Assembly (NCBI RefSeq): GCF_030816965.1 | Contig: NZ_JAUSYQ010000002.1 | Location: 5,429,501-5,493,500, forward strand | Origin: Streptomyces canus | Lineage (GTDB): Bacteria > Actinomycetota > Actinomycetes > Streptomycetales > Streptomycetaceae | Length of the DNA: 64,000 nucleotides | Reading direction: 5' to 3' | Shown: positions 12,419-64,000 of the stretch, in pieces | How the letters are laid out: each line of letters opens with the position of its first letter | Numbering within the stretch: position 1 is the first letter of the stretch | Notes under the pieces: generated by a model | The model's input: only the letters and a program-made list of their open reading frames with translations | Told to the model about the DNA's origin: nothing | The model's database searches: none | Program-made: the position numbers and the translations under genes

Positions 12419-14701
12419 GTGAAGACAGTGCTCCTGTCCCCGCGCACCGGTTCCATCACGGTGGCGGATGTTCCCGCCCCCGAGGCGGCCGCCGGGACGG
12501 TGGTCATCCGCAACGACTGGTCGCTCATCAGCGCGGGCACGGAGCGGGCGACCGTCTCCACCGGCGCCAAGGGCCTGATCGGCAAGGCGCGGCAGCGGCC
12601 CGATCAGGTCGCCCAGGTGATCGACAGCGTGAAACGGACAGGGCTCGCGGACACCTACCGGACCGTCAGGGACCGTCTGGACCGACCGGTGCAGCTCGGC
12701 TACTCCTGCGCGGGGACGGTGCTGCGGACGGGGGAGGGCGTCGACGACCTCCGCCCGGGCATGCGGGTGGCCGCCGCCGGGGCCCGTTACGCGTCGCACG
12801 CGGAGATCGTCGCGGTACCCCGCAACCTCGTGGTGCCGGTGCCGGACGCGGTGGACACCCGGTGGGCCGCCTTCGCCACGGTCGGCGCGATCGCGCTCCA
12901 GGGCATCCACCAGGCCGAGGTGGCGCCCGGTTCCCGGATCGCCGTCATCGGGCTCGGCCTGCTCGGCCAGATCACGCTCCGGCTGCTGCGGGCCTACGGC
13001 TACGACGCGGTGGGCATCGACCCCGACCCGGCCATGGTGGCGCTCGCCGAGTCCGCCGGGCTCACCGCCTTCCCACGGGACGCGGACGGTCTGCCGCGCA
13101 TGGTCCTGCGGGGCTGGGCGGGCGCCGGCGCGGACGCCGTGCTCATCACCGCGGCCACGCCCAGTGCCGACCCCGTCGAGTTCGCGGGCCGTCTCGCCCG
13201 CGACCGGGCCACCGTGGTGGTCGTCGGCGACGTGGGCGTCGCGCCGCCCCGGTCGTCGTACTACCACAAGGAACTGACGATCCGTTACGCGAGGTCCTAC
13301 GGCCCCGGCCGCTACGACCCCCGCTTCGAGGAGGGCGGCCATCCCTACCCCGAGGGCTATGTGCCGTGGACGGAACGGCGCAACCTCGCCGAGGTACTGC
13401 GGCTCCTTCAGACGGGCGCCGTGGACTTCGCCGACCTGAAGCCGCGGATCTTCACCGTGGAGGACGCGGCCGAGGCGTACGAGGCGCTCAAGCCGTCGCC
13501 CGGTGAACGCAGCGTCGCCCTGCTGCTGCGCTACCCCGGCACCGCGCAGTTGCCGTCGCCGCCGGCCCCGCGGACCACGCCCCGCACCTGGAGTCCCCCG
13601 CGCGAAAGCGTGCGGATCGCGGCCATCGGAGCGGGCAACTTCGCGACGCGGACGCTCTTTCCCGAGCTGAGGCGGGAAGCCGGCGTCGCCTTCTCCTGGG
13701 TCGCCGGCGGACGCGGGCTGTCCGCCGCGCACCAGGGGCGGCAGTGGGGGTTCGACCAGGTCGCGGAGAGCGTCGACGCCGGCCTGGCGTCGGGCGAGGC
13801 GGACTGCGTGATGGTGCTCAGTCGCCACGACAGCCACGGCCGGTACGCGGCCCGGGTGCTGCGCGGCGGCAGGGCCCTGTACTGCGAGAAGCCGGTGGGC
13901 CTGACGGAGACGGAACTGGAGGATGTCGCGCAGGCGTGGTCGGCCTCCGGCGCCCCGGCGATGGCCGGCTTCAACCGGCGGTTCGCGCCCGCGGTCGCGG
14001 ACCTGCGGGCCGTGCTGCCCGAGGGAGCGCCGCTCCAGATCGTCTACCGGGTGTTCGCGGGCCGCCTCCCGGCCGACCACTGGTACTTCCAGCCCGAACA
14101 GGGCGGCCGGCTGCTCGGCGAGGTGTGCCACTTCGTCGACACCGCGGGCTTCCTGGTGCCCGGGCGGCCGGTCCGGGTGCGGGCCACCGGCGTGGACGCC
14201 GCGGACCCCGCCACCGCGCAGAGCGTCACCCTCCAGATCGCGTACGACGACGGCTCGTCCGCGTCCGTCGTCTACGGGGGGTTCACACCGCCCGGCGCGC
14301 CCAAGGAACTCCTGGAGGTGGCCGGCGACGGGGTGGCCGCCAGGATCGACGACTTCCGCACGCTCACCGTGTGGAAGGGAGGCAGGCCGGAGACGACCAC
14401 CTACCGAGGCGCGCCCAAGGGGCACGCGGCGGAGATGCGCACCCTCGTCCGCCTGGTCCGCGGGGAGTCGCTCGGCACCGGGCCCGCTGCCGCCGCCGAC
14501 TTCGCCTCCGCGCTGGAGAGTTCCCTCGTCACCTGCCGGGCGGCCCGCTCGCTCACGGAGGACCGGCCGGTCGACTGCGCCCCTGCCACCGCGGCCCTGG
14601 CCGGGGCCCTCGGGCGCCCGCAGCTCCCTGCCGTCACTGACACCGTGCCCGACCCGGGCGGGCCGGCGGACGGCCACCCGTCGACCACGGAGGTGCTGTG
14701 A
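12419..14701 (+). CDS. Two-domain oxidoreductase (zinc-type alcohol dehydrogenase plus Gfo/Idh/MocA)
   Basis: A 760-residue fusion. The first half is a medium-chain dehydrogenase-like domain with a V-I-G-L-G-L-L-G-Q dinucleotide motif. The second half is a Gfo/Idh/MocA oxidoreductase with A-A-I-G-A-G-N-F-A and the C-E-K-P-V-G catalytic lysine motif. Such fusions are common in bacterial polysaccharide and exopolysaccharide loci, where they are presumed to oxidise or epimerise sugars. The exact reaction is not known. The stop overlaps the AsnB start (TGATG), coupling the two. The start is uncertain: GTG at 12419 follows AGGAAA closely, and another GTG lies 33 bases upstream. Confidence 0.82.
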   Translation: MKTVLLSPRTGSITVADVPAPEAAAGTVVIRNDWSLISAGTERATVSTGAKGLIGKARQRPDQVAQVIDSVKRTGLADTYRTVRDRLDRPVQLGYSCAGTVLRTGEGVDDLRPGMRVAAAGARYASHAEIVAVPRNLVVPVPDAVDTRWAAFATVGAIALQGIHQAEVAPGSRIAVIGLGLLGQITLRLLRAYGYDAVGIDPDPAMVALAESAGLTAFPRDADGLPRMVLRGWAGAGADAVLITAATPSADPVEFAGRLARDRATVVVVGDVGVAPPRSSYYHKELTIRYARSYGPGRYDPRFEEGGHPYPEGYVPWTERRNLAEVLRLLQTGAVDFADLKPRIFTVEDAAEAYEALKPSPGERSVALLLRYPGTAQLPSPPAPRTTPRTWSPPRESVRIAAIGAGNFATRTLFPELRREAGVAFSWVAGGRGLSAAHQGRQWGFDQVAESVDAGLASGEADCVMVLSRHDSHGRYAARVLRGGRALYCEKPVGLTETELEDVAQAWSASGAPAMAGFNRRFAPAVADLRAVLPEGAPLQIVYRVFAGRLPADHWYFQPEQGGRLLGEVCHFVDTAGFLVPGRPVRVRATGVDAADPATAQSVTLQIAYDDGSSASVVYGGFTPPGAPKELLEVAGDGVAARIDDFRTLTVWKGGRPETTTYRGAPKGHAAEMRTLVRLVRGESLGTGPAAAADFASALESSLVTCRAARSLTEDRPVDCAPATAALAGALGRPQLPAVTDTVPDPGGPADGHPSTTEVL

Positions 14702-16608
14702 TGTGCGGCTTCCTCGTCCTGCTGAACGGGGCCGCGCGCAGCCGGTCGCGGTCGCTGCCGGACCCGTGCGAGGCGCTCGCCCACCGCGGCCCCGACGCGA
14801 GCGGTCACCTCGCGCTCGTCGGCCCCGGCTGGCGGGCCGTGCTGCACTTCCGCCGCCTGGCCGTCGTGGACCTCGACCCGAGGAGTGGCCAGCCCTTCGG
14901 CTCGCCCGAACGGGGCGTGCTGGTCTACAACGGCGAGGTCTACAACGCGCCGTACCTGCGCGAGCTGCTGCGCGGGCGGCACGTGAGGTTCACGACCGAG
15001 GGCGACACCGAGGTCCTCTACGAACTCCTGTTGCAACCGGACGCACCGCAGCTGCTCGATGAGGTGGACGGCATGTTCGCCTTCGCCCTCGTCCTGCCCG
15101 ACGGCGAGGTGCGCTACGGACGTGACCGGCTGGGCGTCAAGCCGCTGTACGTGGCGGTCGACGCGGCGGGGGACATGGTCGGCCTCGCCAGCGAGATCGA
15201 ACCGCTGCGGGCCGCGGGGCTGACCGGGGGCGCCGACCCGGTCGCGGTGGCGCAGGGTGCCATGTTCCTGTGGACGCCGCCGCCGCGGACCGGCTGGCAG
15301 CGCGTCAGTTCCGTACCGGCCGGGACGGTGCTGTCCCGGCGTGCGCCCGGGTACGACGAGGCGTCCGCATGGTGGCGCGCTCCCGCCCTCGCGCCCGCCG
15401 CGGACATCGCCGCCGCCGTCCGTGAGTCGGTCGCGCGTCAGGTGCGGGCCGATGTGAAGGTGGGGCTGCTGCTCAGCGGGGGCCTGGACAGCACCTGGCT
15501 GGGCGTGGAACTCCTCAGGGAGGGCTTCACCGGACCCGCCTTCAGCGCCAGGTCGCGCACCGCGGTGCCCGGCACGGAGCCGTTCGAGGAGGACGCCCCC
15601 TACGCCGCCCGGGTGGCCGACGAGTTGGGCCTGCCGCTGGCCTGGGTCGACCTCGACGTCGACGTGCTGCGCCGGATCCCCGAGCTGGTGACCACCATGG
15701 AGCTGCCGTTCGGCGACCCCGCCGCCGTCGCCCTCATGCAGTTGTCCCGCGCCGCCCGCGACGAGGCGACCGTGCTGTTGTCGGGGCTGGGTGTCGAGGA
15801 ACTGTTCCTGGGCTACGAGCGCTACCAGGCCGTCCTGCTGCTGCAACGGCTTCCCGCCTGGACGCGCCCGACCCTCGGCGCCGCCACCCTGGTTCCCGCG
15901 CCCCGGCGCTACCGGGGCCGCGCGGACAAGTTCGGCCGGCTGCTCCAGCTCGGTGCCCGCGACTGGTCGTGGGCGACGCAGTCGTACTACTCCGGGAAGG
16001 AGTGGGCGGCGCTGTCACCCCTCGTGGGACTGGACGCGGTCGCCGAGCGGCACCGTGAGGTGGCGGGGGCCGTGCTGGACGCTGGCGGAACGCCCCTCGC
16101 GGCGCTGGCGGAGTGCGACCGGCGGCTGTTCCTGCCGGGACTGAACCTGCTGTACGGGGACCGCGCGTCGATGCGCGCGAGCGTCGAACTGCGGGTCCCG
16201 TTCCTGGCGGAGCCGGTGGTGGCCGCCGCTCTCGGCGCCGCCGCGGAGGAGCAGCTGCGGATGGGAGACGGCAAGGCGCGCTTCCGCGCGGCCGCGGTGG
16301 CCTCCGGCGTGCCGGAGTTCGTCGCCCGGCGCCCCAAGACGGGATTCGGGGCGCCGGTACGGTCGTTGCTGCGCGAGCACGGCGACCGGCTGTGGACCGA
16401 GGTACGGCGCTCCCCGCTGTTCGACGACCTCTTCGACCGGCGCACGGCGGACCGTTTCGTCGCCGAGCACGTACACGGCCGGCGCGACCGGGGGCTCGCC
16501 GTGTTCGGGCTGCTGTGTGCGGCCGTGTGGTGGGAGCGGTACGCGACGGGCGGCGCGGGGCGGACGGAGGAGGTTCTGGCGGGGTATGAGGCGTCCGTCG
16601 GCGGGTGA
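14701..16608 (+). CDS. AsnB-type glutamine amidotransferase of the polysaccharide locus
   Basis: A 635-residue class II amidotransferase with an N-terminal Ntn glutaminase and a C-terminal ATP-pyrophosphatase domain. ATG at 14701 places the nucleophile Cys at position 2 (M-C-G-F); the upstream GTG would bury it. The glutamine-binding R-G-P-D (29-32) and Y-N-G-E (76-79) are intact, and S-G-G-L-D-S-T at 259-265 is the AMP-forming P-loop. Coupled to the oxidoreductase and near a ManNAcA pathway, it may amidate a uronic acid carboxylate, as proposed for AsnB-like proteins in other glycan loci. A housekeeping asparagine synthetase is less likely here. Confidence 0.85.
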   Translation: MCGFLVLLNGAARSRSRSLPDPCEALAHRGPDASGHLALVGPGWRAVLHFRRLAVVDLDPRSGQPFGSPERGVLVYNGEVYNAPYLRELLRGRHVRFTTEGDTEVLYELLLQPDAPQLLDEVDGMFAFALVLPDGEVRYGRDRLGVKPLYVAVDAAGDMVGLASEIEPLRAAGLTGGADPVAVAQGAMFLWTPPPRTGWQRVSSVPAGTVLSRRAPGYDEASAWWRAPALAPAADIAAAVRESVARQVRADVKVGLLLSGGLDSTWLGVELLREGFTGPAFSARSRTAVPGTEPFEEDAPYAARVADELGLPLAWVDLDVDVLRRIPELVTTMELPFGDPAAVALMQLSRAARDEATVLLSGLGVEELFLGYERYQAVLLLQRLPAWTRPTLGAATLVPAPRRYRGRADKFGRLLQLGARDWSWATQSYYSGKEWAALSPLVGLDAVAERHREVAGAVLDAGGTPLAALAECDRRLFLPGLNLLYGDRASMRASVELRVPFLAEPVVAAALGAAAEEQLRMGDGKARFRAAAVASGVPEFVARRPKTGFGAPVRSLLREHGDRLWTEVRRSPLFDDLFDRRTADRFVAEHVHGRRDRGLAVFGLLCAAVWWERYATGGAGRTEEVLAGYEASVGG

Positions 16609-52966: not shown

Positions 52967-54388
52967 ATGAAGCGTCGGTCGCTTCGCGGATCGTGGGTCC
53001 AGACCATTGCCATGCTCTCTGCGGCGGGGACTCTTGGTCTGGTCCTGAACGTCGCGTCGTCGACGACCGCTCCGGCCGACGTCATGGAAGAGTCTGCGGT
53101 CGATTCCGCTCCCGGTGTGCCGGCTGCGAACGGCGCCGTGAGTGCCGCTTCCGATGCCCGCACACGGCGGCCTGGCCATGACGACGGCGACGGGCTGGAC
53201 GACGGCGACGGGCTAGACGAGGGCGACGGGCTAGACGAGGGCGAAGGGGGCGGCGGGGAGCAACATGAGCGGCCTGGTCCATCTGACCAGCAGGACCAGC
53301 AGGACCAGCAGGATCAGCAGGACCAGCAGGATTCACCTGGCCAGCACGATGAGGACGACCAGCACGACCAGCACGACCAGCACGACCAGCACGACCAGCA
53401 CGATGAGCATGGTCCGCAAGGTCCGCAGGGCCCGCAGGGCCCGCAGGGTTTCCAGGGCGATACCGGTGCGCAGGGCGCCCAGGGCGGCGTCGGTGCGCAA
53501 GGCAGTCAGGGTTTCCAGGGTGGTCCCGGCAGCCAGGGAAGTCAGGGTTTCCAGGGCAGCCAAGGCGATACCGGTGCGCAGGGCTTCCAGGGCGGTACCG
53601 GTGCGCAGGGTAACCAAGGCGGTACCGGAGCTCAGGGTGCTCAGGGCGGTGCCGGGACACCAGGGGCTCAGGGTGGGACCGGGGCGCAGGGAATTCAGGG
53701 CAGTCAGGGCGGTACCGGCGCGCAGGGCAACCAGGGCGGCACAGGCCCGCAGGGTAGCCAGGGCGGGGTCGGGGCGCAGGGCAGCCAGGGCAGTCAGGGC
53801 GGTACCGGAGCTCAGGGCGCTCAGGGCGGTGCCGGGACACCAGGGGCTCAGGGTGGGACCGGGGCGCAGGGAATTCAGGGCAGTCAGGGCGGTACCGGCG
53901 CGCAGGGCAACCAGGGCGGCACAGGCCCGCAGGGTAGCCAGGGCGGCGTCGGTGCGCAGGGCAACCAGGGCAGTCAGGGCGGTACTGGCGCGCAGGGTGC
54001 TCAGGGCGGTGCCGGGACACCAGGGGCTCAGGGTGGGACCGGGGCGCAGGGAATTCAGGGCAGTCAGGGCGGTACTGGCGCGCAGGGCAACCAGGGCGGC
54101 ACAGGCCCGCAGGGCAACCAGGGCGGCGTCGGTGCGCAGGGCGTGCAGGGCAGTCAAGGCGGTACGGGCGCGCAGGGCGGTCAGGGTGGGCTCGGCCCGC
54201 AGGGCGTCCAGGGCGGGACCGGGGCACAGGGCATGCAGGGCAATCAGGGCGGTACCGGTGCTCAGGGCAGCCAGGGCACCCACTACCCGACCGACTGGCA
54301 CTCCAGGAACCAGATCTCTTATGTGGTGGCCAACCTGATCGCGATGAAGGATGGCGCCGAACGCTGCGGCGGTCTCCTGCTGGTGTGA
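52967..54388 (+). CDS. Secreted collagen-like repeat protein
   Basis: A 473-residue protein. A signal-like N-terminus (R-R-S-L-R then a hydrophobic core) is followed by short repeats (D-G-D-G-L-D, then Q-Q-D and Q-H-D triplets). About 290 residues of Gly-x-y follow, with Q-G at most positions (A-Q-G, T-G-A, N-Q-G), then a 36-residue tail with one Cys. No sorting signal or transmembrane anchor, so release or non-covalent binding is likely. Bacterial collagens form triple helices; here y is mostly Gln, Ala or Gly and proline is scarce, so stability by Pro is unlikely. ATG with AGGAGGG upstream. Large internal DNA repeats are listed separately. Confidence 0.83.
   Translation: MKRRSLRGSWVQTIAMLSAAGTLGLVLNVASSTTAPADVMEESAVDSAPGVPAANGAVSAASDARTRRPGHDDGDGLDDGDGLDEGDGLDEGEGGGGEQHERPGPSDQQDQQDQQDQQDQQDSPGQHDEDDQHDQHDQHDQHDQHDEHGPQGPQGPQGPQGFQGDTGAQGAQGGVGAQGSQGFQGGPGSQGSQGFQGSQGDTGAQGFQGGTGAQGNQGGTGAQGAQGGAGTPGAQGGTGAQGIQGSQGGTGAQGNQGGTGPQGSQGGVGAQGSQGSQGGTGAQGAQGGAGTPGAQGGTGAQGIQGSQGGTGAQGNQGGTGPQGSQGGVGAQGNQGSQGGTGAQGAQGGAGTPGAQGGTGAQGIQGSQGGTGAQGNQGGTGPQGNQGGVGAQGVQGSQGGTGAQGGQGGLGPQGVQGGTGAQGMQGNQGGTGAQGSQGTHYPTDWHSRNQISYVVANLIAMKDGAERCGGLLLV
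53165..53410 (+). repeat. Short tandem repeats (18 bp and 9 bp) in the collagen-like gene
   Basis: First an 18-bp unit GACGAGGGCGACGGGCTA-like about four times (to about 53240), then CAGCAGGAC (9 bp) about five times, then CAGCACGAC (9 bp) about five times. They encode acidic D-G-D-G-L-D and hydrophilic Q-Q-D / Q-H-D tracts. Length variation by slippage is expected. Confidence 0.85.
53641..54180 (+). repeat. Three 180-bp tandem repeats in the collagen-like gene
   Basis: Units at 53641, 53821 and 54001. The first 120 bp of units 1 and 2 are identical, and the first 60 bp of all three are identical; the third diverges at its end. Each encodes 60 residues of Gly-x-y, including the only T-P-G triplet. 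The pattern indicates recent duplication by unequal exchange. Confidence 0.95.
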
Positions 54389-54589: not shown

Positions 54590-54876
54590 TCAGGAGCCCG
54601 GTGACGCGAGGCGTCGCAGGCGGCCGGCGGCCTCGTGGAGAACGTCGTCCCGCTTGCAGAACGCGAACCGCACGAACGGTGCCCCGGCCTCGCGGTGGTC
54701 GTAGAAGACCGCGTTGGGAATGGCCACCACGCCCGCGCGCTCCGGAAGGGCGCGGCAGAAGGCGAAGCCGTCCTTCTCGCCGCGGGGGCGGATGTCGGTG
54801 GTGATGACGTCAGGAACTGCTTCGCCGAGCGCACGGCCGCCACCAGCCCCGGGGCCGACGTGACCCAGGCGACGCC
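54590..54876 (-). pseudogene. Aminotransferase class I/II fragment A (internally deleted)
   Basis: One frame reads W-V-T-S-A-P-G-L-V-A-A-V-R-S-A-K-Q-F-L-T, as after the PLP lysine loop of DapC/kynurenine-type aminotransferases. It then changes frame at about 54815 to T-T-D-I-R-P-R-G-E-K-D-G-F-A-F, through R-F-A-F-C-K to the normal C-terminal end. Some 55 residues between these blocks and the whole N-terminus are missing. The last 150 bp closely resemble fragment B, 1.4 kb away. Confidence 0.8.
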
Positions 54877-55986: not shown

Positions 55987-56351
55987 CTACGACTTCAGGC
56001 GCTTCACAGCCTCCTGGAGTACCTCGGTCTGCTTGCAGAAGGCGAACCGCACGAAGGGCGCGCCCGCCTCACGGTGGTCGTAGAAGACGGCGTTCGGGAT
56101 CGCGACCACGCCCGCGCGCTCCGGCAGCGCCCGGCAGAAGGCGAAGCCGTCCTTCTCGCCGAGGGGGCGGATGTCGGTGGTGATGAAGTAGGTTCCCGCA
56201 GGCCGGAACACCTCGAAGCCCGCCTGAGTGAGCCCCGCAGCCAGCAGGTCCCGCTTGGCCAGCATGTCCGCGCGGAACGCGGTGAAGTAGCTGTCGGGAG
56301 CGCGAGGGCCTCGGCGACGGCGTACTGGAACGGGCCGGAAGGCGACACCTC
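55987..56351 (-). pseudogene. Aminotransferase class I/II fragment B (5' truncated, frameshifted)
   Basis: Starts abruptly at V-S-P-S-G-P-F-Q-Y-A-V-A-E-A-L-A-L-P, loses one base near 56300, and continues in the next frame as D-S-Y-F-T-A-F-R, then F-R-P-A-G-T-Y-F-I-T-T-D-I to R-F-A-F-C-K and the natural stop. It is the C-terminal 120 residues of a PLP-dependent aminotransferase without its PLP lysine. The first residues follow on from where the first block of fragment A stops. Confidence 0.82.
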
Positions 56352-56590
56352 GTTCGTACACTCATTCGCGTGTCGTGCAACACGTACCAGCTCGGCCGGT
56401 CCCGAACAGCACGCGGGATCTTCACCACACCAACGTCCTCCCGAAGATCGCCGGACGCCTACACGTCGAGCTGCCCGGCAGCGCGTCATCCGCAAGGCGC
56501 CACGTTACGATGCGAGCAGTCGCGCCCTGTCCGTCCGATGGGAGCAGCGCAGACCACCTCGGACGTCGGTGGAGGGGAGGCGACGAGGGA

Positions 56591-58053: not shown

Positions 58054-59913
58054 ATGTCTGCGGTAGCCGGCTGGGTCGACCATCGCCGTGATCTGTCCAC
58101 TCGGGTCAGCGTGGTCACGGCCATGGCGCGGACCATGGTGAACCGTGGGCCGGAGGGCGAGCACGTCTGGAGCAGTCCGTACGCCGTCCTCGCCGGCCGT
58201 GGCCGTGCCGCCGAGGGTGTGGGTGGCGCACAGTTCGCGGTGATCGGGTCGGAGGGCCGGCGGATCGTGGTCAGCCTCGCCGGCCGACTGGACAACCGGC
58301 GCGGCGTCTCGCAGGAGCTGGGACTGGGTGATCACGGGGCCGCGGACCTCCCCGTCGCCGAACTGGTCGGACGCGCCTTCCTGCGGTGGGGGCCGGGGTG
58401 CGCGGAGCACCTGGAGGGCATGTTCGCCTTCGCGCTGTGGGACGAGCGGCGGCAGGAGCTGTTCATGGCGCGGGACCGTCTCGGCACCCGAGCGCTCTTC
58501 TACTACCCGACGCCGACCGGGGTGCTCTTCGCCTCGGAACGCAAGGCGCTGCTCGCCCACCCCGAGGTGACGGCGGCCGTGGACGCGGACGGGCTGCGCG
58601 AGCTGATCTCGCACGCGGGCACTCCGGGGGCGGCCGTGTTCCGCGGAATGCGCCAGGTACCCAGCGGGTGCGTCGTGCGTTTCGGCCCGGACGGTGAGCG
58701 TACGGAGCGGTATTGGGCCCTGCGGTCCGGTGAGCACGGAGACGACCTGGCCACCACCGTCCGTACGGTCCGATCGCTGCTTGAGGACGCCGTAGCGCGG
58801 CAGATCGACACGGCAGTGCCCACGGCCGTACTGCTGTCGGGTGGGCTGGACTCCAGCGCGATCAGCGCACTGGCTGCCGGAGCGCTGAGACGGCGTGGCG
58901 CCGGACCGCTGCGGGCGTTCACGGTCGGTTTCGCGGACCAGGCCGAGCACTTCCGCGCCGACGAGGTGTGGAACACCCCGGACGACCCGTTCGTCGCGGA
59001 CGTCGCGCGCCATGTGGGAGCCGAGTTGACGCCCCTCGTGCTGGACACCGGACGGCTCCTCGATCCGGCAGCCCGTCAGGCCGCTCTGCACGCCCGGGAC
59101 CTGCCCAGCTGCCTCGGCCACACGAACACGTCCCTCTATCTGGTGTGCCGGGCCGCGGCCGGACACACGCCCGCCGCCCTGCACGGCGACCCGGCGGACG
59201 CGGTGTTCGGCGGCTTCACCTGGGCGTACAAGCCGGAACTGCTGAACGCCCGGACCCTGCCGTGGGTCGCCCGCGCCGCGTCCGGCGGCGGCAGGGCAGG
59301 AATGGGCGGTGATCTGCTCGACGAACAGCTCCTGAAGGAGCTGGACATTCCCGGCTACAGCGCCGCCCGCCACAGCGAGGCCGTCGCCGAGGTGGCCCCC
59401 GTGGCAGGCGAGTCCGAACGTGACCGCCGACTGCGGGAGATCTCCTATCTGCACCTGACGCGCTGGCCCGAGACCCTCATCGGGCACAGCGAGGCACTGA
59501 GCACCGCGGCGGGGCTGCAGCTGCGGTGGCCATTCGCCGACCACCGTCTGATCGAGTACGTCTACAACACGCCGTGGTCGATGAAGAGCTTCGACGGCCG
59601 CGAGAAGAGCCTGTTGCGTGCGGCGGCCATGGACGTGCTGCCCGAGTCCGTGGTGAACCGTACGAAGTCGCCCTTCCCCGTCATCCAGGACGAGGCGTAC
59701 GGGCGTGCCCTGTGCCGGGAAATGACCGAGCTGGTCAACGACCCCTCGGCGCCCGCTGCCGAGGTGCTGAACGCCGATGCCGTGCGCGCGCTCGTGGCCG
59801 ACCCCTCGTCCCTGGCGTCCGGGCCGCGCGCCTGGGTGGCGCGGGCAGGCGCCGAGATGCTGCTCCAGCTCAACACCTGGTTGCAGACGTATCGGGTGCG
59901 CCTCGAACTCTGA
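58054..59913 (+). CDS. Asparagine-synthetase-like ATP-dependent amide ligase without glutaminase residues
   Basis: A 619-residue member of the AsnB family. The C-terminal ATP-pyrophosphatase domain is intact (S-G-G-L-D-S-S at 262-268). In the N-terminal domain the nucleophile Cys2 is Ser (M-S-A-V-A-G-W), R-G-P-D is R-G-P-E, and the glutamine-binding N-G-E is replaced (L-A-G-R-L-D at 75-80). It therefore cannot release ammonia from glutamine. The same loss is known in beta-lactam synthetase and lasso cyclases, which join an amine in the substrate itself. An intramolecular or external-amine amide product is inferred. ATG has AAGGAAGG just upstream. First gene of a five-gene operon. Confidence 0.85.
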   Translation: MSAVAGWVDHRRDLSTRVSVVTAMARTMVNRGPEGEHVWSSPYAVLAGRGRAAEGVGGAQFAVIGSEGRRIVVSLAGRLDNRRGVSQELGLGDHGAADLPVAELVGRAFLRWGPGCAEHLEGMFAFALWDERRQELFMARDRLGTRALFYYPTPTGVLFASERKALLAHPEVTAAVDADGLRELISHAGTPGAAVFRGMRQVPSGCVVRFGPDGERTERYWALRSGEHGDDLATTVRTVRSLLEDAVARQIDTAVPTAVLLSGGLDSSAISALAAGALRRRGAGPLRAFTVGFADQAEHFRADEVWNTPDDPFVADVARHVGAELTPLVLDTGRLLDPAARQAALHARDLPSCLGHTNTSLYLVCRAAAGHTPAALHGDPADAVFGGFTWAYKPELLNARTLPWVARAASGGGRAGMGGDLLDEQLLKELDIPGYSAARHSEAVAEVAPVAGESERDRRLREISYLHLTRWPETLIGHSEALSTAAGLQLRWPFADHRLIEYVYNTPWSMKSFDGREKSLLRAAAMDVLPESVVNRTKSPFPVIQDEAYGRALCREMTELVNDPSAPAAEVLNADAVRALVADPSSLASGPRAWVARAGAEMLLQLNTWLQTYRVRLEL

Positions 59914-59979
59914 ACGGTGCCGCAGCCCTCCACGCCTGCCAAGGCCCCTACAACCCACTACTCACAGCAGGGAACCCAC

Positions 59980-60894
59980 ATGACGAACGTCTCGCGCCCC
60001 GCGCGTGCTCTGGCCGCGGCGTCGCTCGCCGTCCTGTCCTTGGCGGGCTGCGCCGCCGATGTCGCGCAGGCCGCCCCGGCACACTCCGACGCGGCGACCC
60101 GGGTCCACGGACCCCACCCCGTCGACGTCCTCCTTGCCAACAAGCAGCTCGACGTGCCCGGCCGCCTCTCGGCCGGGACGATCACCTTCAACTTCCGTAC
60201 CACTGACACCAAGGGACACACGGTACTGCTGGTACGTCTGAAGGACGGGGCCACCGTCAAGGACTACCTGGCGCAGCTCGCGACGATCTCGCACGACCCG
60301 GCGCACGCCGCCGAGGCCGCGCGCACGGCAGCCGACGAGGCCGAGAACCTGGGCGGTGCCGTCGTGGACCAGTCCGCCCCCGGGTCGTTCACAACCGTGC
60401 TCTCCGCGGGCACCTACCACCTACTGGACTTCAGCTCCGTCGGCGTGTCCGACCCCGACCCGGCGGTCACCTCGTTCCAGGTGACCGGGCACACCCGCCA
60501 CGCCGCCGTTCCGGCGCCGGACGCCGTGATCGTCCAGGCCGACGTGGATGGGAAGGCCCGATACGTGGTGCCCGATCACCTGCCCGCCGACGGTACGGTC
60601 CTGGTGACCAACGAGTCCTCGGCCGGCGAGGAGGCCACGCTCACCCCGGTCGAACCCGGCACCACCGATGCCGACCTGGCGGCATACTTCGCCTCTTTCG
60701 CTACCGGCACGCAGGTGGCGAACCCCTTCACCGGACCCACGGTCGGCATGCCGGTGATGAGCCCCGGCCGCCAGGGTCTGATGCACTACGCGATCCCGGC
60801 CGGAACATACGCACTGGCCTCGTACGCCGTCGACCCGGCCAACGGCCGTCGTCGCGCGGCCGAGGGCATGGCCACCGTCGTCACGGTCCGCTGA
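59980..60894 (+). CDS. Predicted lipoprotein of unknown function in the AsnB-like operon
   Basis: A 304-residue exported protein. The signal peptide ends in a lipobox L-A-G-C near residue 22, so membrane anchoring is expected. The mature part is rich in beta strands and Thr/Val, with two similar halves (about 60-150 and 165-290), but has no cofactor motif I recognise. Its start lies 66 bp after the ligase stop. Possible roles are binding the pathway product or shielding the cell. Confidence 0.7.
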   Translation: MTNVSRPARALAAASLAVLSLAGCAADVAQAAPAHSDAATRVHGPHPVDVLLANKQLDVPGRLSAGTITFNFRTTDTKGHTVLLVRLKDGATVKDYLAQLATISHDPAHAAEAARTAADEAENLGGAVVDQSAPGSFTTVLSAGTYHLLDFSSVGVSDPDPAVTSFQVTGHTRHAAVPAPDAVIVQADVDGKARYVVPDHLPADGTVLVTNESSAGEEATLTPVEPGTTDADLAAYFASFATGTQVANPFTGPTVGMPVMSPGRQGLMHYAIPAGTYALASYAVDPANGRRRAAEGMATVVTVR

Positions 60895-60907
60895 CGGAGC
60901 GCGCACG

Positions 60908-61369
60908 ATGGCCAATCTCGTCTTCCCTCTGGTCCTGCTGACGAACGGGCTGGCGGCCGGCGGGCTGATGATCGCGGTGCTCGGCGGCGCCCCGCTGCTG
61001 TTGTCGCTGCCGGTCGACCGCTACGTACCGGTCCATCAGTTCCTCGTCACGCGGTTCGATCCCTTCATGCCGGTCAACCTCGTGTCGGCGCTGCTGCTGG
61101 ACGCCGTCCTCGCCGTGCTGGTCCCGGACACCACCGTCTCGGTGCTGACGGGCACGGCATGCGTGTTCCTCGTCGTCACCATGACGATCTCGCTCGCCAA
61201 GAACGTCCCCATCAACCGCTGGGTCGCCACACTCGACCGCGACAGCCTGCCCGACAACTGGGCGGAGATCGATCCGCGGGTCAAGTGGCGCAACTGGAAC
61301 GCCGTTCGCGCCGCTTTCGGTGTCGCGGCGTTCGTGCTCAACGTGACCGCCGCCGGCTTCCTGCTCTGA
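60908..61369 (+). CDS. DUF1772 membrane protein 1
   Basis: A 153-residue protein with four membrane helices and the family block K-N-V-P-I-N-R-W, then L-P-D-N-W and W-R-N-W-N. DUF1772 includes the fungal anthrone-oxygenase-like proteins, which act without obvious cofactor on aromatic polyketides; bacterial members are mostly uncharacterised. GGAG eight bases before the ATG. 13 bp after the lipoprotein gene and 27 bp before the O-methyltransferase. Confidence 0.83.
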   Translation: MANLVFPLVLLTNGLAAGGLMIAVLGGAPLLLSLPVDRYVPVHQFLVTRFDPFMPVNLVSALLLDAVLAVLVPDTTVSVLTGTACVFLVVTMTISLAKNVPINRWVATLDRDSLPDNWAEIDPRVKWRNWNAVRAAFGVAAFVLNVTAAGFLL

Positions 61370-61396
61370 TCCGACCGATCGACCGAGGAGAACGAC

Positions 61397-62452
61397 ATGA
61401 CTCTCACGCAACCGGGGGCCGACGCCTTCGCCAGGCCGGCGGACACACCTGGCATGCCCCCGCACCTGCAACTGCTGATGATCGTCGAGGGCAAGCGGGC
61501 CTCGCAGATCGTCTACGCGCTGGCGGAACTCGGGATCGCCGACCATCTGGCCGACGGCCCGCGCCCGGCGGCCGAGCTCGCCGAGCTGACCGGCGCCGAC
61601 CCGGATGCCCTCTACCGACTGCTGCGCTGCGCCGCGTCGTTCGGTGTCTTCGCCGAACTGCCCGAGCGCCGCTTCACCCTCACCCCCATGGCCGACGCCC
61701 TGCGCAGCGACGTCCCGCACAGCCAGCGCGACCTGGTGCTGTTCAACGGGCACGAGACGCTCTGGCGTCCGCTGGGAGAGATCCTGCACAGCGTCCGTTC
61801 GGGACGACCCTCGTTCGACGAGGTCTTCGGCAAGCCGTTCTTCCAGCACCTGGGATCGGATCCCGAGGCGGCCGGGCTGTTCAACCGCGCGATGACCAGG
61901 ATGAGCCGACTTTCGACGGCCGCGCTGCTGTCTCAGGCCGACTTCTCACGGTTCGCGAGCATCGCCGACATCGGCGGCGGGCACGGGTTCTTCCTCAGCG
62001 AGGTGCTGCGCACCGCCCCGCACGCCAAGGGGGTGCTCTTCGACCAGCCCTCGGTGATCGAAGGGGCGGCGACCCGGTTGGCCGACGACGTCTTTGACCG
62101 GATCACGACCGTGGCCGGGGACTTCTTCGGCGAGGTGCCGTCCGGTCACGACGCCTATCTGATCAAGGCGGTGCTCCACGACTGGGACGACGAACGGGCC
62201 GTGGCGATTCTGCGCCGGGTGCGCGAGGCGACAGCCGGCAGCGAAGCACCGCTGTTCCTCTGCGAGTTCGTGCTCTCCGGCCCGAACAGCTGGGACCGCG
62301 GCAAGTTTCTCGACATCGAGATGCTGCTCCGCTTCGGCGGCAGGGAGCGCGACCTCGGCGAGTGGCGGTCGCTGCTCGGCGCGGCGGGGTTCGAGATCGT
62401 CAACGAGCCGCCCGTCGGCGGCTGGGCGGTCATCGAATGCCGCGCGATCTGA
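61397..62452 (+). CDS. O-methyltransferase (hydroxyindole/acetylserotonin type)
   Basis: A 351-residue two-domain methyltransferase. The N-terminal dimerisation winged helix has Y-A-L-A-E-L-G-I-A-D-H-L and L-Y-R-L-L-R. The SAM domain has D-I-G-G-G-H-G-F-F and the catalytic K-A-V-L-H-D-W-D-D-E, where the His near residue 259 acts as base. This family methylates phenolic hydroxyls in secondary metabolism, so an aromatic substrate is likely. GAGGAG six bases before the ATG. It lies between two DUF1772 genes. Confidence 0.9.
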   Translation: MTLTQPGADAFARPADTPGMPPHLQLLMIVEGKRASQIVYALAELGIADHLADGPRPAAELAELTGADPDALYRLLRCAASFGVFAELPERRFTLTPMADALRSDVPHSQRDLVLFNGHETLWRPLGEILHSVRSGRPSFDEVFGKPFFQHLGSDPEAAGLFNRAMTRMSRLSTAALLSQADFSRFASIADIGGGHGFFLSEVLRTAPHAKGVLFDQPSVIEGAATRLADDVFDRITTVAGDFFGEVPSGHDAYLIKAVLHDWDDERAVAILRRVREATAGSEAPLFLCEFVLSGPNSWDRGKFLDIEMLLRFGGRERDLGEWRSLLGAAGFEIVNEPPVGGWAVIECRAI

Positions 62453-62468
62453 CCGGGAGGTCCGCGAC

Positions 62469-62927
62469 GTGGTGACTCAACTGCTCGGTGTCGTGCAGCT
62501 GGTGCTGTGCGGAGTCGTCGCCGGAGTTTTCGTCTCGGTGGCGCTGAGCGCCGTACCCGCCTTCTCCGCGCTGCCGCCGGACCGGTACGTCGAGGTCCAC
62601 CGGCTCCTCGGCAGGGGCTACCACCCCGCCATGCCCGTGATCGTGAACGTCGCGACCGGGCTGGACCTCGTGCTCGCCCTGCTGTCGACGTCGGCGGCAA
62701 GGTCGGCTCTGTTCGTCACCGGCCTGGTTCTGCTGATCGGCACCCAGTGCGTCTCGCACCTGCGCAACGTCCCGATCAACCGGACCCTCGCCGCGCTCGA
62801 CGTGACGAGGCTTCCCGACAACTGGGAGGACCCCCGGACGCGGTGGCGCGGCTGGCACTACCTGCGGACCGCCCTGGCCCTGTGTGCGGTCACGGTGAAC
62901 GCGGTGGCGCTGGTGGCGCCGGTCTGA
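62469..62927 (+). CDS. DUF1772 membrane protein 2
   Basis: A 152-residue paralogue of the first DUF1772 protein: four membrane helices, R-N-V-P-I-N-R-T, L-P-D-N-W and W-R-G-W-H-Y. The N-terminal half has diverged. Two adjacent GTGs; the first has GGGAGG eight bases upstream. Last gene of the operon, followed by a hairpin. A heterodimer with the first copy, or two successive oxidations, are both possible. Confidence 0.83.
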   Translation: MVTQLLGVVQLVLCGVVAGVFVSVALSAVPAFSALPPDRYVEVHRLLGRGYHPAMPVIVNVATGLDLVLALLSTSAARSALFVTGLVLLIGTQCVSHLRNVPINRTLAALDVTRLPDNWEDPRTRWRGWHYLRTALALCAVTVNAVALVAPV

Positions 62928-62970: not shown

Positions 62971-63013
62971 CGGTGCCGAGGGCTCCGTCTTCCCGACGGG
63001 GCCCTCGGCACCG
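62971..63013. terminator. Terminator of the AsnB-like operon
   Basis: An 18-bp interrupted stem: CGGTGCCGAGGGC pairs with GCCCTCGGCACCG, and CCGTC with GACGG inside, with single-base bulges and a 5-base loop. It lies 44 bp after the last gene and before the sensor kinase. Confidence 0.88.
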
Positions 63014-63051: not shown

Positions 63052-64000
63052 ATGAACCTGCGCAGGTGGCCGCCCGCGGTCGTCGACGTCGTGGTGGCCG
63101 CGGCCGTCGCCGCCGTGGTGTGCGTCGCGATACATATCGCCTACGAACCGGGCGCGTATCCCCCTGATCTGGGGGCGTACTTCCTGGGCACGGCAATTGG
63201 TGCCGTACTGCTGGCCAGACGGACCCATCCGCTCGGCGTGCTGGCCGCCACCACGGTCCTGCTGTTCGTCTACTACACCGTCGAATATCCGGGGATCGAG
63301 CCGGCGCTGCCACTGGCGGCGGCCCTGTACACCGCCTGCACGGCCGGACGTCTGAAGTGGTCCGCCGGTGTGGCGGCCTTCTTCGTCGGCGCCGACCTCG
63401 TCGTGCACGGCGTACGGCTGGGCGATCCTCCGCTTCCCCTGCTGACCAACATTGTTCAGGATTCCTCCCTGCTCATCGCGGTGATGCTGCTGGGTGACAC
63501 CGTGCGCAACCGGCGCATCCGGCTCGCCGAGGCGCAGGCGCGGCTCGAGGAGTCCGAGGCGCAACGGGAGCGGGAGGCCGCACAGCGGGTGACCGAGGAA
63601 CGGCTGCGCATCGCCCGCGAGGTGCACGACATCATCGGCCACTCGATCTCGGCGATCACCGTCCAGGCGGGCCTCGCCCAGGACGTGCTCAAGGACCGGC
63701 CCGAGGCGGCCGAGGCGGCGTTGCGCGTGGTCCGGCAGGCCGCCCGGGACGCGATGAGTGAACTCAAGGCCACCGTGGGCTTGTTGCGGGCTCAGGGCGA
63801 GGACGAGTGGTCTCCGGCTCCGACCCTGGCCGCTGTCGACGACCTGGCGGAGCTGGCGCGGCAGGCCGGGGTGGCGGTGTCGGTCACGGTGGACGGCGAG
63901 GCCCGGCCGCTGCCCGGCGTGGTGGATGCGTCGGCCTACCGTATCGTCCAGGAGTCCCTGACCAACGTCGTACGCCACTCGGGGGCACAGCGGGCGGCGG
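63052..64000 (+). CDS. Two-component sensor histidine kinase (NarL-partner type), 3' end cut by window
   Basis: At least 316 residues. Five or so membrane helices in the first 150 residues without a large sensor domain are followed by a coiled linker. The HisKA_3 phosphoacceptor His192 lies in R-E-V-H-D-I-I-G-H-S, and the N-box R-I-V-Q-E-S-L-T-N-V-V-R-H-S begins the ATPase domain near the window end. A LuxR-type response regulator is expected just outside. The ATG has weak ribosome context, so the transcript may be leaderless or nearly so. It could sense the product of the preceding operon or an envelope signal. Confidence 0.88.
   Translation, partial: MNLRRWPPAVVDVVVAAAVAAVVCVAIHIAYEPGAYPPDLGAYFLGTAIGAVLLARRTHPLGVLAATTVLLFVYYTVEYPGIEPALPLAAALYTACTAGRLKWSAGVAAFFVGADLVVHGVRLGDPPLPLLTNIVQDSSLLIAVMLLGDTVRNRRIRLAEAQARLEESEAQREREAAQRVTEERLRIAREVHDIIGHSISAITVQAGLAQDVLKDRPEAAEAALRVVRQAARDAMSELKATVGLLRAQGEDEWSPAPTLAAVDDLAELARQAGVAVSVTVDGEARPLPGVVDASAYRIVQESLTNVVRHSGAQRAA

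What the first reader, a model, noticed from the sequence alone, without database searches (positions are those of the whole stretch)
58054..62927. Compact operon: glutaminase-dead AsnB homologue, lipoprotein, and DUF1772-OMT-DUF1772
Five genes with gaps of 13-66 bp end at a terminator. The enzymes predicted are an amide-forming ligase, a phenolic O-methyltransferase and two anthrone-oxygenase-like membrane proteins. No polyketide, peptide or terpene synthase is present, so a standard cluster finder would probably miss it. A small aromatic amide or lactam made from primary metabolites is a reasonable guess. The repressor/peptidase pair before it and sensor kinase after it could control it.
Basis: partly seen in the sequence, partly recalled or inferred. 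Interest (0 to 1): 0.75.

Follow-up and report, generated by a model that had tools for sequence, protein, structure and literature searches.

The report
Tailoring operon of a polyketide cluster
These five genes look like the finishing arm of an antibiotic-type aromatic polyketide gene cluster whose core genes lie just past the window's edge, and the odd 'asparagine synthase' in it most likely attaches an amino acid or other amine to the product.

Summary
In detail: five same-strand genes (AsnB-like, exported protein, DUF1772-A, O-methyltransferase, DUF1772-B), gaps 66/13/27/16 bp, then a strong hairpin. The AsnB glutaminase Cys is Ser. The central interpretation, a PKS-free operon making a small amide from primary metabolites, is a window-edge artefact: in the same genome a type II PKS block (KS, CLF, ACP, cyclases, ketoreductases, two ABM oxygenases, SARP) lies 4-16 kb past the operon. 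In 392 Streptomyces, 28-30 of the 31 strongest DUF1772-A places lie within 35 kb of a cyclase relative of this block. Of 40 DUF1772-bearing loci read, 35 carry KS and 23 an AsnB relative. The AsnB belongs to a clade that lost the glutaminase Cys and, in 47 of 47 rows, a Glu of the synthetase loop. The clade holds a protein of Actinomadura hibisca, the pradimicin producer; an 85% relative of it sits in a type II PKS cluster with DUF1772 and a 51% OMT. Best reading: tailoring arm of an uncharacterised, probably pentangular-type cluster; AsnB likely a glutamine-independent amide ligase of PdmN type. New member of a known kind.

The parts
58054..59913 (+). AsnB-like amide ligase, 619 aa; glutaminase Cys2 is Ser, motif Glu is Arg; ATP loop SGGLDSS and EKSLLR kept; synthetase loop GDPADA instead of GExxDE
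59980..60894 (+). exported protein with lipobox-like LAGC (by reading), 304 aa, no Pfam family; model has two beta domains of cupredoxin-like arrangement; its only Cys is that of the lipobox
60908..61369 (+). DUF1772 / Anthrone_oxy-family protein A, 153 aa
61397..62452 (+). SAM O-methyltransferase (Dimerisation + Methyltransf_2), 351 aa; 54-58% relatives beside DUF1772-A in several clusters, 51% in the Actinomadura-family cluster
62469..62927 (+). DUF1772 / Anthrone_oxy-family protein B, 152 aa, GTG start
62972..63012 (+). strong inverted repeat without T run, probable terminator
63052..63999 (+). histidine kinase (HisKA_3, HATPase_c), runs on to 64221 in window numbering; followed by a LuxR-type regulator ORF

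Best explanation
The operon is a tailoring arm of a type II polyketide cluster, probably of pentangular type, that straddles the window's right edge. The core (SARP, PEP-synthase-like enzyme, SchA/CurD protein, two ketoreductases, two ABM oxygenases, cyclases, ACP, CLF, KS) is on the opposite strand at window-equivalent 67,217-78,613. Shown: gene content, position, and recurrence of these families together in other genomes. Inferred: the AsnB-like enzyme adenylates the carboxylate of the polyketide and lets a free amine, most likely an amino acid, attack it without hydrolysing glutamine, as reported for PdmN of pradimicin; the OMT methylates a phenol of the core; the DUF1772 pair takes part in ring oxidation or cyclisation; the exported protein acts outside the membrane. 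My odds: cluster membership about 0.9, amide-ligase chemistry about 0.55, an amino acid as acceptor about 0.4.
For: PF04673 cyclase 14.3 kb past the window end; a full type II PKS gene set there, confirmed by Pfam. Of 40 DUF1772-bearing loci read, 35 carry KS-alpha and 23 an AsnB relative. 30 of the top 31 DUF1772-A places lie within 35 kb of a relative of this cluster's cupin (28 of 31 without two rows that I added by hand). G391 and G405 carry relatives of all five operon genes plus KS and a multicopper oxidase. Of the 38 best-scoring AsnB homologues other than itself (50% identity and above), 37 read without the Cys and one (P0027) starts downstream of it. P0039 of Actinomadura hibisca is in the same starred 47-row clade; its 85% relative in G628 lies beside KS, CLF, ACP, two DUF1772 genes and a 51% OMT. 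Review text: PdmN introduces D-Ala or D-Ser (passages). The second Glu of the synthetase loop is lost in 47 of 47 clade-I rows, in 0 of 43 Cys-bearing and 0 of 14 rubromycin-type rows.
Against: The operon is not contiguous with the PKS block: kinase, regulator and multicopper oxidase lie between and the strands converge. The locus closest over most core genes, G257:C165 (61-77% for nine of them; ACP 42%, PF04673 cyclase 54%), has DUF1772 A and B but no AsnB, an OMT of only 25% and no relative of the exported protein in 54 kb. Of 82 cyclase places typed, 37 have neither DUF1772 nearby, and 17 of the 40 DUF1772 loci show no AsnB in the stretch read. P0039 branches outside the 39-row group that holds the window protein, whose nearest rows are mostly unnamed metagenome proteins; that P0039 is PdmN is inferred from the organism. 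Clade-I rows are variable at the glutaminase Glu (12 of 47 keep it). The two-site change arises once on the tree, so it is one event, not a replicated correlation. Cys-bearing AsnB genes also occur in such clusters (5 of 20 readable).
Confidence: 0.65

Rival explanations
1. The AsnB-like enzyme activates the polyketide carboxylate but the nucleophile is an internal hydroxyl, giving a lactone; this is my recalled idea for the RubR/GrhP enzymes of rubromycin and griseorhodin clusters, not stated in the passages I read.
For: A 14-row rubromycin-type clade also lost the Cys. Its loci carry DUF1772 - unknown - AsnB - (SARP) - cyclase - cupin - KS - KS, the order of the hyaluromycin/rubromycin/griseorhodin table with an asparagine synthase of 623 aa.
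Against: The window enzyme is not in that clade; those 14 rows keep both Glu of the synthetase loop, while the window's clade lost the second in 47 of 47.
Confidence: 0.2
2. The enzyme makes a simple amide or lactam nitrogen from free ammonia, a glutaminase-less version of the XanA-type amide synthetases.
For: XanA is an amide synthetase by gene deletion; LtmO, Arx5 and Alb21 are its relatives or counterparts (passages). ATP site intact here.
Against: The synthetase loop of the window's clade differs from all Cys-bearing rows.
Confidence: 0.2
3. The operon is an independent cluster making a small aromatic amide from primary metabolites, merely next to a PKS cluster.
For: Own strand, own hairpin terminator, separated from the core by kinase, regulator and multicopper oxidase genes.
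Against: DUF1772, OMT and AsnB families recur inside type II PKS clusters.
Confidence: 0.06
4. The AsnB-like protein is a decaying pseudoenzyme.
For: Both active-site regions carry changes.
Against: Reading frame intact; SGGLDSS and EKSLLR kept; the loss of Cys and of the second loop Glu is shared by 46 other, diverse rows.
Confidence: 0.07

Closest known systems
Pradimicin amino-acid ligase PdmN (Actinomadura hibisca)
   Different: P0039 branches outside the window's inner group; synthetase loop GQLADS against GDPADA; that P0039 is PdmN is inferred; the window cluster's product is unknown
RubR/GrhP asparagine-synthase-like proteins of rubromycin/griseorhodin/hyaluromycin clusters
   Same: Rubromycin-type loci found here: Cys lost, DUF1772 nearby, type II PKS
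   Different: Separate clade; both loop Glu kept; about 45% identical
XanA / Arx5 / LtmO / Alb21 amide formers of xantholipin, arixanthomycin, lanthomicin and albofungin clusters
   Same: AsnB-family enzymes in related aromatic polyketide clusters (passages)
   Different: Their sequences were not compared
TsnB9-type hydroxyamidotransferase (PDB 7ylz; SaHAT)
   Same: Best full-length solved relative, E 7.7e-121
   Different: Keeps MCG; SaHAT uses glutamyl hydroxamate (abstract). TsnB6/TsnB7 partners were not searched for in this genome
Persiamycin cluster DUF1772 protein PerU6
   Same: A 151 aa DUF1772 protein listed beside KS and a TcmI-type cyclase (one passage)
   Different: Function given as hypothetical

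Membership tests
Type II polyketide biosynthetic gene cluster | two ketosynthase-type subunits (KS, CLF) and an ACP together | tested here: met
   window-equivalent 74,945-77,803: two ketoacyl-synt proteins and PP-binding; relatives 64-75% (KS) and 59-63% (CLF)
Type II polyketide biosynthetic gene cluster, pentangular type | PF04673 + cupin + Polyketide_cyc cyclases, ketoreductase, paired ABM oxygenases | tested here: met
   that this set marks pentangular clusters is recalled
Type II polyketide biosynthetic gene cluster, pentangular type | five angularly fused rings in the product | not testable with these tools
   no metabolite data
Glutamine-hydrolysing asparagine synthase (TIGR01536) | score above curated cut-off | tested here: met
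   292.6 against 267.1 bits
Glutamine-hydrolysing asparagine synthase (TIGR01536) | N-terminal Cys and glutaminase Glu | tested here: not met
   Ser2, and Arg for the Glu kept in 43 of 43 Cys-bearing rows; so not a member by mechanism despite the score
PdmN-type amino-acid ligase | AsnB-like enzyme without glutaminase Cys, in a type II PKS cluster | tested here: met
   the feature is my generalisation from P0039 and G628, not a published definition
PdmN-type amino-acid ligase | couples an amino acid to the polyketide carboxylate | not testable with these tools
   needs an enzyme assay
RubR/GrhP clade | groups with rubromycin-type sequences | tested here: not met
   separate starred groups (quick tree, no AU test)
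Anthrone oxygenase family PF08592 | score above gathering cut-off | tested here: met
   39.7 and 42.4 against 27.3 bits
Anthrone oxygenase family PF08592 | oxygenation of an anthrone | not testable with these tools
   no assay; the protein in the matching place of rubromycin clusters is listed as unknown
Lasso peptide cyclase | score above NCBIfam cut-off | tested here: not met
   178.7 against 525 bits
Cupredoxin-like protein (59980-60894) | fold match to solved cupredoxins | tested here: inconclusive

The most novel reading that the evidence does not exclude
Clade I is a distinct family of glutamine-independent AsnB-type ligases that lost the glutaminase Cys and the second Glu of the synthetase GExxDE loop together, so that a free amino acid rather than channelled ammonia attacks the acyl-adenylate. 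The sequence rule (Ser2 plus Ala, Gly or Ser for that Glu) would then predict amino-acid-conjugated aromatic polyketides directly from genomes, with this Streptomyces cluster making an undescribed one through a partner set of two DUF1772 proteins, an OMT and an exported cupredoxin-like protein.
Probability: 0.35. Interest if true: 0.55.

Novelty: new member of a known kind. Interest (0 to 1): 0.38.

Why it matters
It gives an uncharacterised aromatic polyketide cluster with a testable prediction (an amide-conjugated product). It shows that the label 'asparagine synthase (glutamine-hydrolyzing)' is wrong for a recognisable clade found in such clusters. It also ties two DUF1772 proteins, whose role in these pathways I found nowhere stated in the passages read, to type II PKS clusters.
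Full report
Observation. The five ORFs, order, strand and gaps are as described. Pfam places them as Asn_synthase with a GATase domain, no family, Anthrone_oxy, Methyltransf_2 and Anthrone_oxy. An 18-pair hairpin without a T run follows the last gene; the consensus scan, which requires a T run, did not report it.

The AsnB-like protein. NCBIfam scores it above the cut-off for glutamine-hydrolysing asparagine synthase, but the catalytic Cys is Ser and the Glu of the next glutaminase motif is Arg. The Asn of that motif is replaced too, but this position is Asn in only 5 of 43 Cys-bearing rows, so it says little. The ATP loop SGGLDSS and EKSLLR are intact. The closest solved relative is 7ylz, a hydroxyamidotransferase, which keeps the Cys. 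Among 100 related genomes, 79 have some AsnB-type match; of the 30 loci kept, four lack the Cys. In the protein database the first 39 rows (itself included) hold 38 without the Cys and one (P0027) that starts downstream of it; of the next 81 rows 76 have it, three lack it (P0085, P0108, P0112) and two start downstream (P0097, P0109). P0027 is from Amycolatopsis arida, whose DNA reads VSGVVGW.

Tree. On 105 rows that I selected, built on the synthetase part only (quick method, SH-aLRT support, midpoint root, no AU test), the 62 Cys-less rows fall into a 47-row group holding the window protein, a 14-row group of rubromycin-type loci and one single row (P0085): three changes, at least two forced by starred branches. 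A few rows in the 47-row group (L039b, L181, P0108, P0112) are long branches whose place is unsure. In the 47-row group the synthetase loop GExxDE has lost its second Glu in 47 of 47 and its first in 28 of 47; all 43 Cys-bearing rows, all 14 rubromycin-type rows and P0085 keep both. The glutaminase Glu is kept in 12 of the 47. This is a single event on the tree. That the first loop Glu corresponds to the general base of E. coli AsnB is recalled, not from a call.

The missing PKS. A search of the window's own genome for PF04673 found two places; one, C2:5507799-5508107, is 14.3 kb past the window's end. Reading on with Pfam gives, in window numbering: histidine kinase (63,052), LuxR-type regulator ORF (64,492), multicopper oxidase (65,188), SARP-type BTAD regulator (67,217), PEP-synthase-like enzyme (69,287), SchA/CurD protein (71,810), ketoreductase (72,258), two ABM oxygenases (73,030; 73,332), ketoreductase (73,673), Polyketide_cyc (74,478), ACP (74,945), second ketosynthase-type subunit, read as CLF (75,321), KS (76,535), cupin (77,803), PF04673 cyclase (78,287-78,613), TetR (78,713).

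Recurrence. In 392 Streptomyces genomes (own included) DUF1772-A and -B have matches at E up to 1e-3 in 220 and 287 genomes (lists capped), but the strong ones cluster: 30 of the top 31 A places and 41 of 48 B places lie within 35 kb of a typed place of a cupin relative (28 of 31 and 39 of 48 without two rows added by hand). The one A exception is on a 4.7-kb contig. Of the 82 cupin places typed, 26 have A and B, 4 A only, 15 B only and 37 neither. Of 40 DUF1772-bearing loci (stretches of 4.7-54 kb; five first fetched through AsnB or the exported protein), 35 have KS-alpha in the stretch read and 23 an AsnB relative: 15 Cys-less, 5 with Cys, 3 with the N-terminus not read. G391 and G405 carry relatives of all five operon genes beside KS/CLF; there the OMT next to AsnB is only 29-30% identical to the window's, another OMT in the cluster 40-42%. 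The exported protein has matches in 30 of 392 genomes (own included), the others at 27-38% identity; by the coordinates it lies near this kind of cluster in G391, G405, G127, G177 and, at 29 kb, G247, so it is not a fixed part.

Named context. Four of these (anandii, californicus, prunicolor, H39-S7) have a KS 70-75% identical to the window cluster's; A. arida shows SchA and ketoreductase matches; S. netropsis none. Six loci could not be read by the script. Among the other 68, KS matches appear only at 34-36% in two, and one Cys-bearing locus (Salinispora oceanensis, L175) has DUF1772, OMT (58%), ketoreductase and ABM matches without a KS in the stretch.

Rubromycin link. In eight of ten loci of the L097-L107 set that I listed, the order is DUF1772 - unknown of 150-195 aa - AsnB - (SARP in five of the eight) - cyclase - cupin - KS - KS; L102 lacks a call for the unknown and L103 for it and DUF1772. 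This matches the hyaluromycin/rubromycin/griseorhodin table GrhM (161 aa, unknown) - GrhN (174 aa, unknown) - GrhP (623 aa, asparagine synthase) - regulator - GrhQ - GrhS - KS (passages of PMC5765640). So GrhM/RubQ is probably a DUF1772 protein (inference).

Pradimicin link. P0039 is named from Actinomadura hibisca. Pradimicins come from that species, and the amino-acid ligase PdmN introduces D-alanine or D-serine (passages of PMC10951976). This is the best functional anchor for the operon. XanA is an amide synthetase; Arx5, LtmO and Alb21 are AsnB-type enzymes assigned to amide or amino-acid steps (passages of PMC9327801, PMC9127795 and PMC7902042). A DUF1772 protein also stands in the persiamycin gene table beside KS (one passage of PMC7296137).

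Verdict. It is, most likely, the tailoring arm of an uncharacterised type II PKS cluster. The clade-wide double change in the ligase is the only part that I find more than routine.

Noticed in passing
54602-54813 and 55993-56390 (- strand); intact relative at window-equivalent 80334-81533: Two 3' fragments of a PLP aminotransferase-like gene lie left of the cluster, in the same orientation as an intact relative at its right end (76-78% DNA identity), as if the cluster lies between old duplicated copies. The enzyme name is by reading.
   Followed up: partly
53433-54277: Degenerate internal repeat region (about 69-84% identity between shifted copies).
   Followed up: no
14701-16608: A second AsnB-like ORF (635 aa, starts MCGFLVLLNG, Cys kept) beside ORFs that read like sugar-nucleotide genes (names by reading, not tested).
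   Followed up: no
L120 (G000:C2:5304001-5324000), about 177 kb left of the PKS block: A second type II PKS locus (KS 63%, CLF 50%) with an OMT 35% identical to the window's and a SchA-like match, but no DUF1772 or AsnB match at E 1e-6; possibly a spore-pigment type (recalled).
   Followed up: partly
window-equivalent 65188-67104 and 69287-71761 (L117): A multicopper oxidase (46-47% relatives in the G391, G405 and G323 clusters) and a PEP-synthase-like enzyme (46% relative in G257:C165 only, of 17 compared) sit between operon and PKS core.
   Followed up: partly
L039 (G012:C1): A cluster with two Cys-less AsnB-like genes 6.5 kb apart (53% and 40% identical to the window's).
   Followed up: no
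58054-59913: TIGR01536 accepts this protein as glutamine-hydrolysing asparagine synthase although the catalytic Cys is absent; many Cys-less proteins bear that name.
   Followed up: yes
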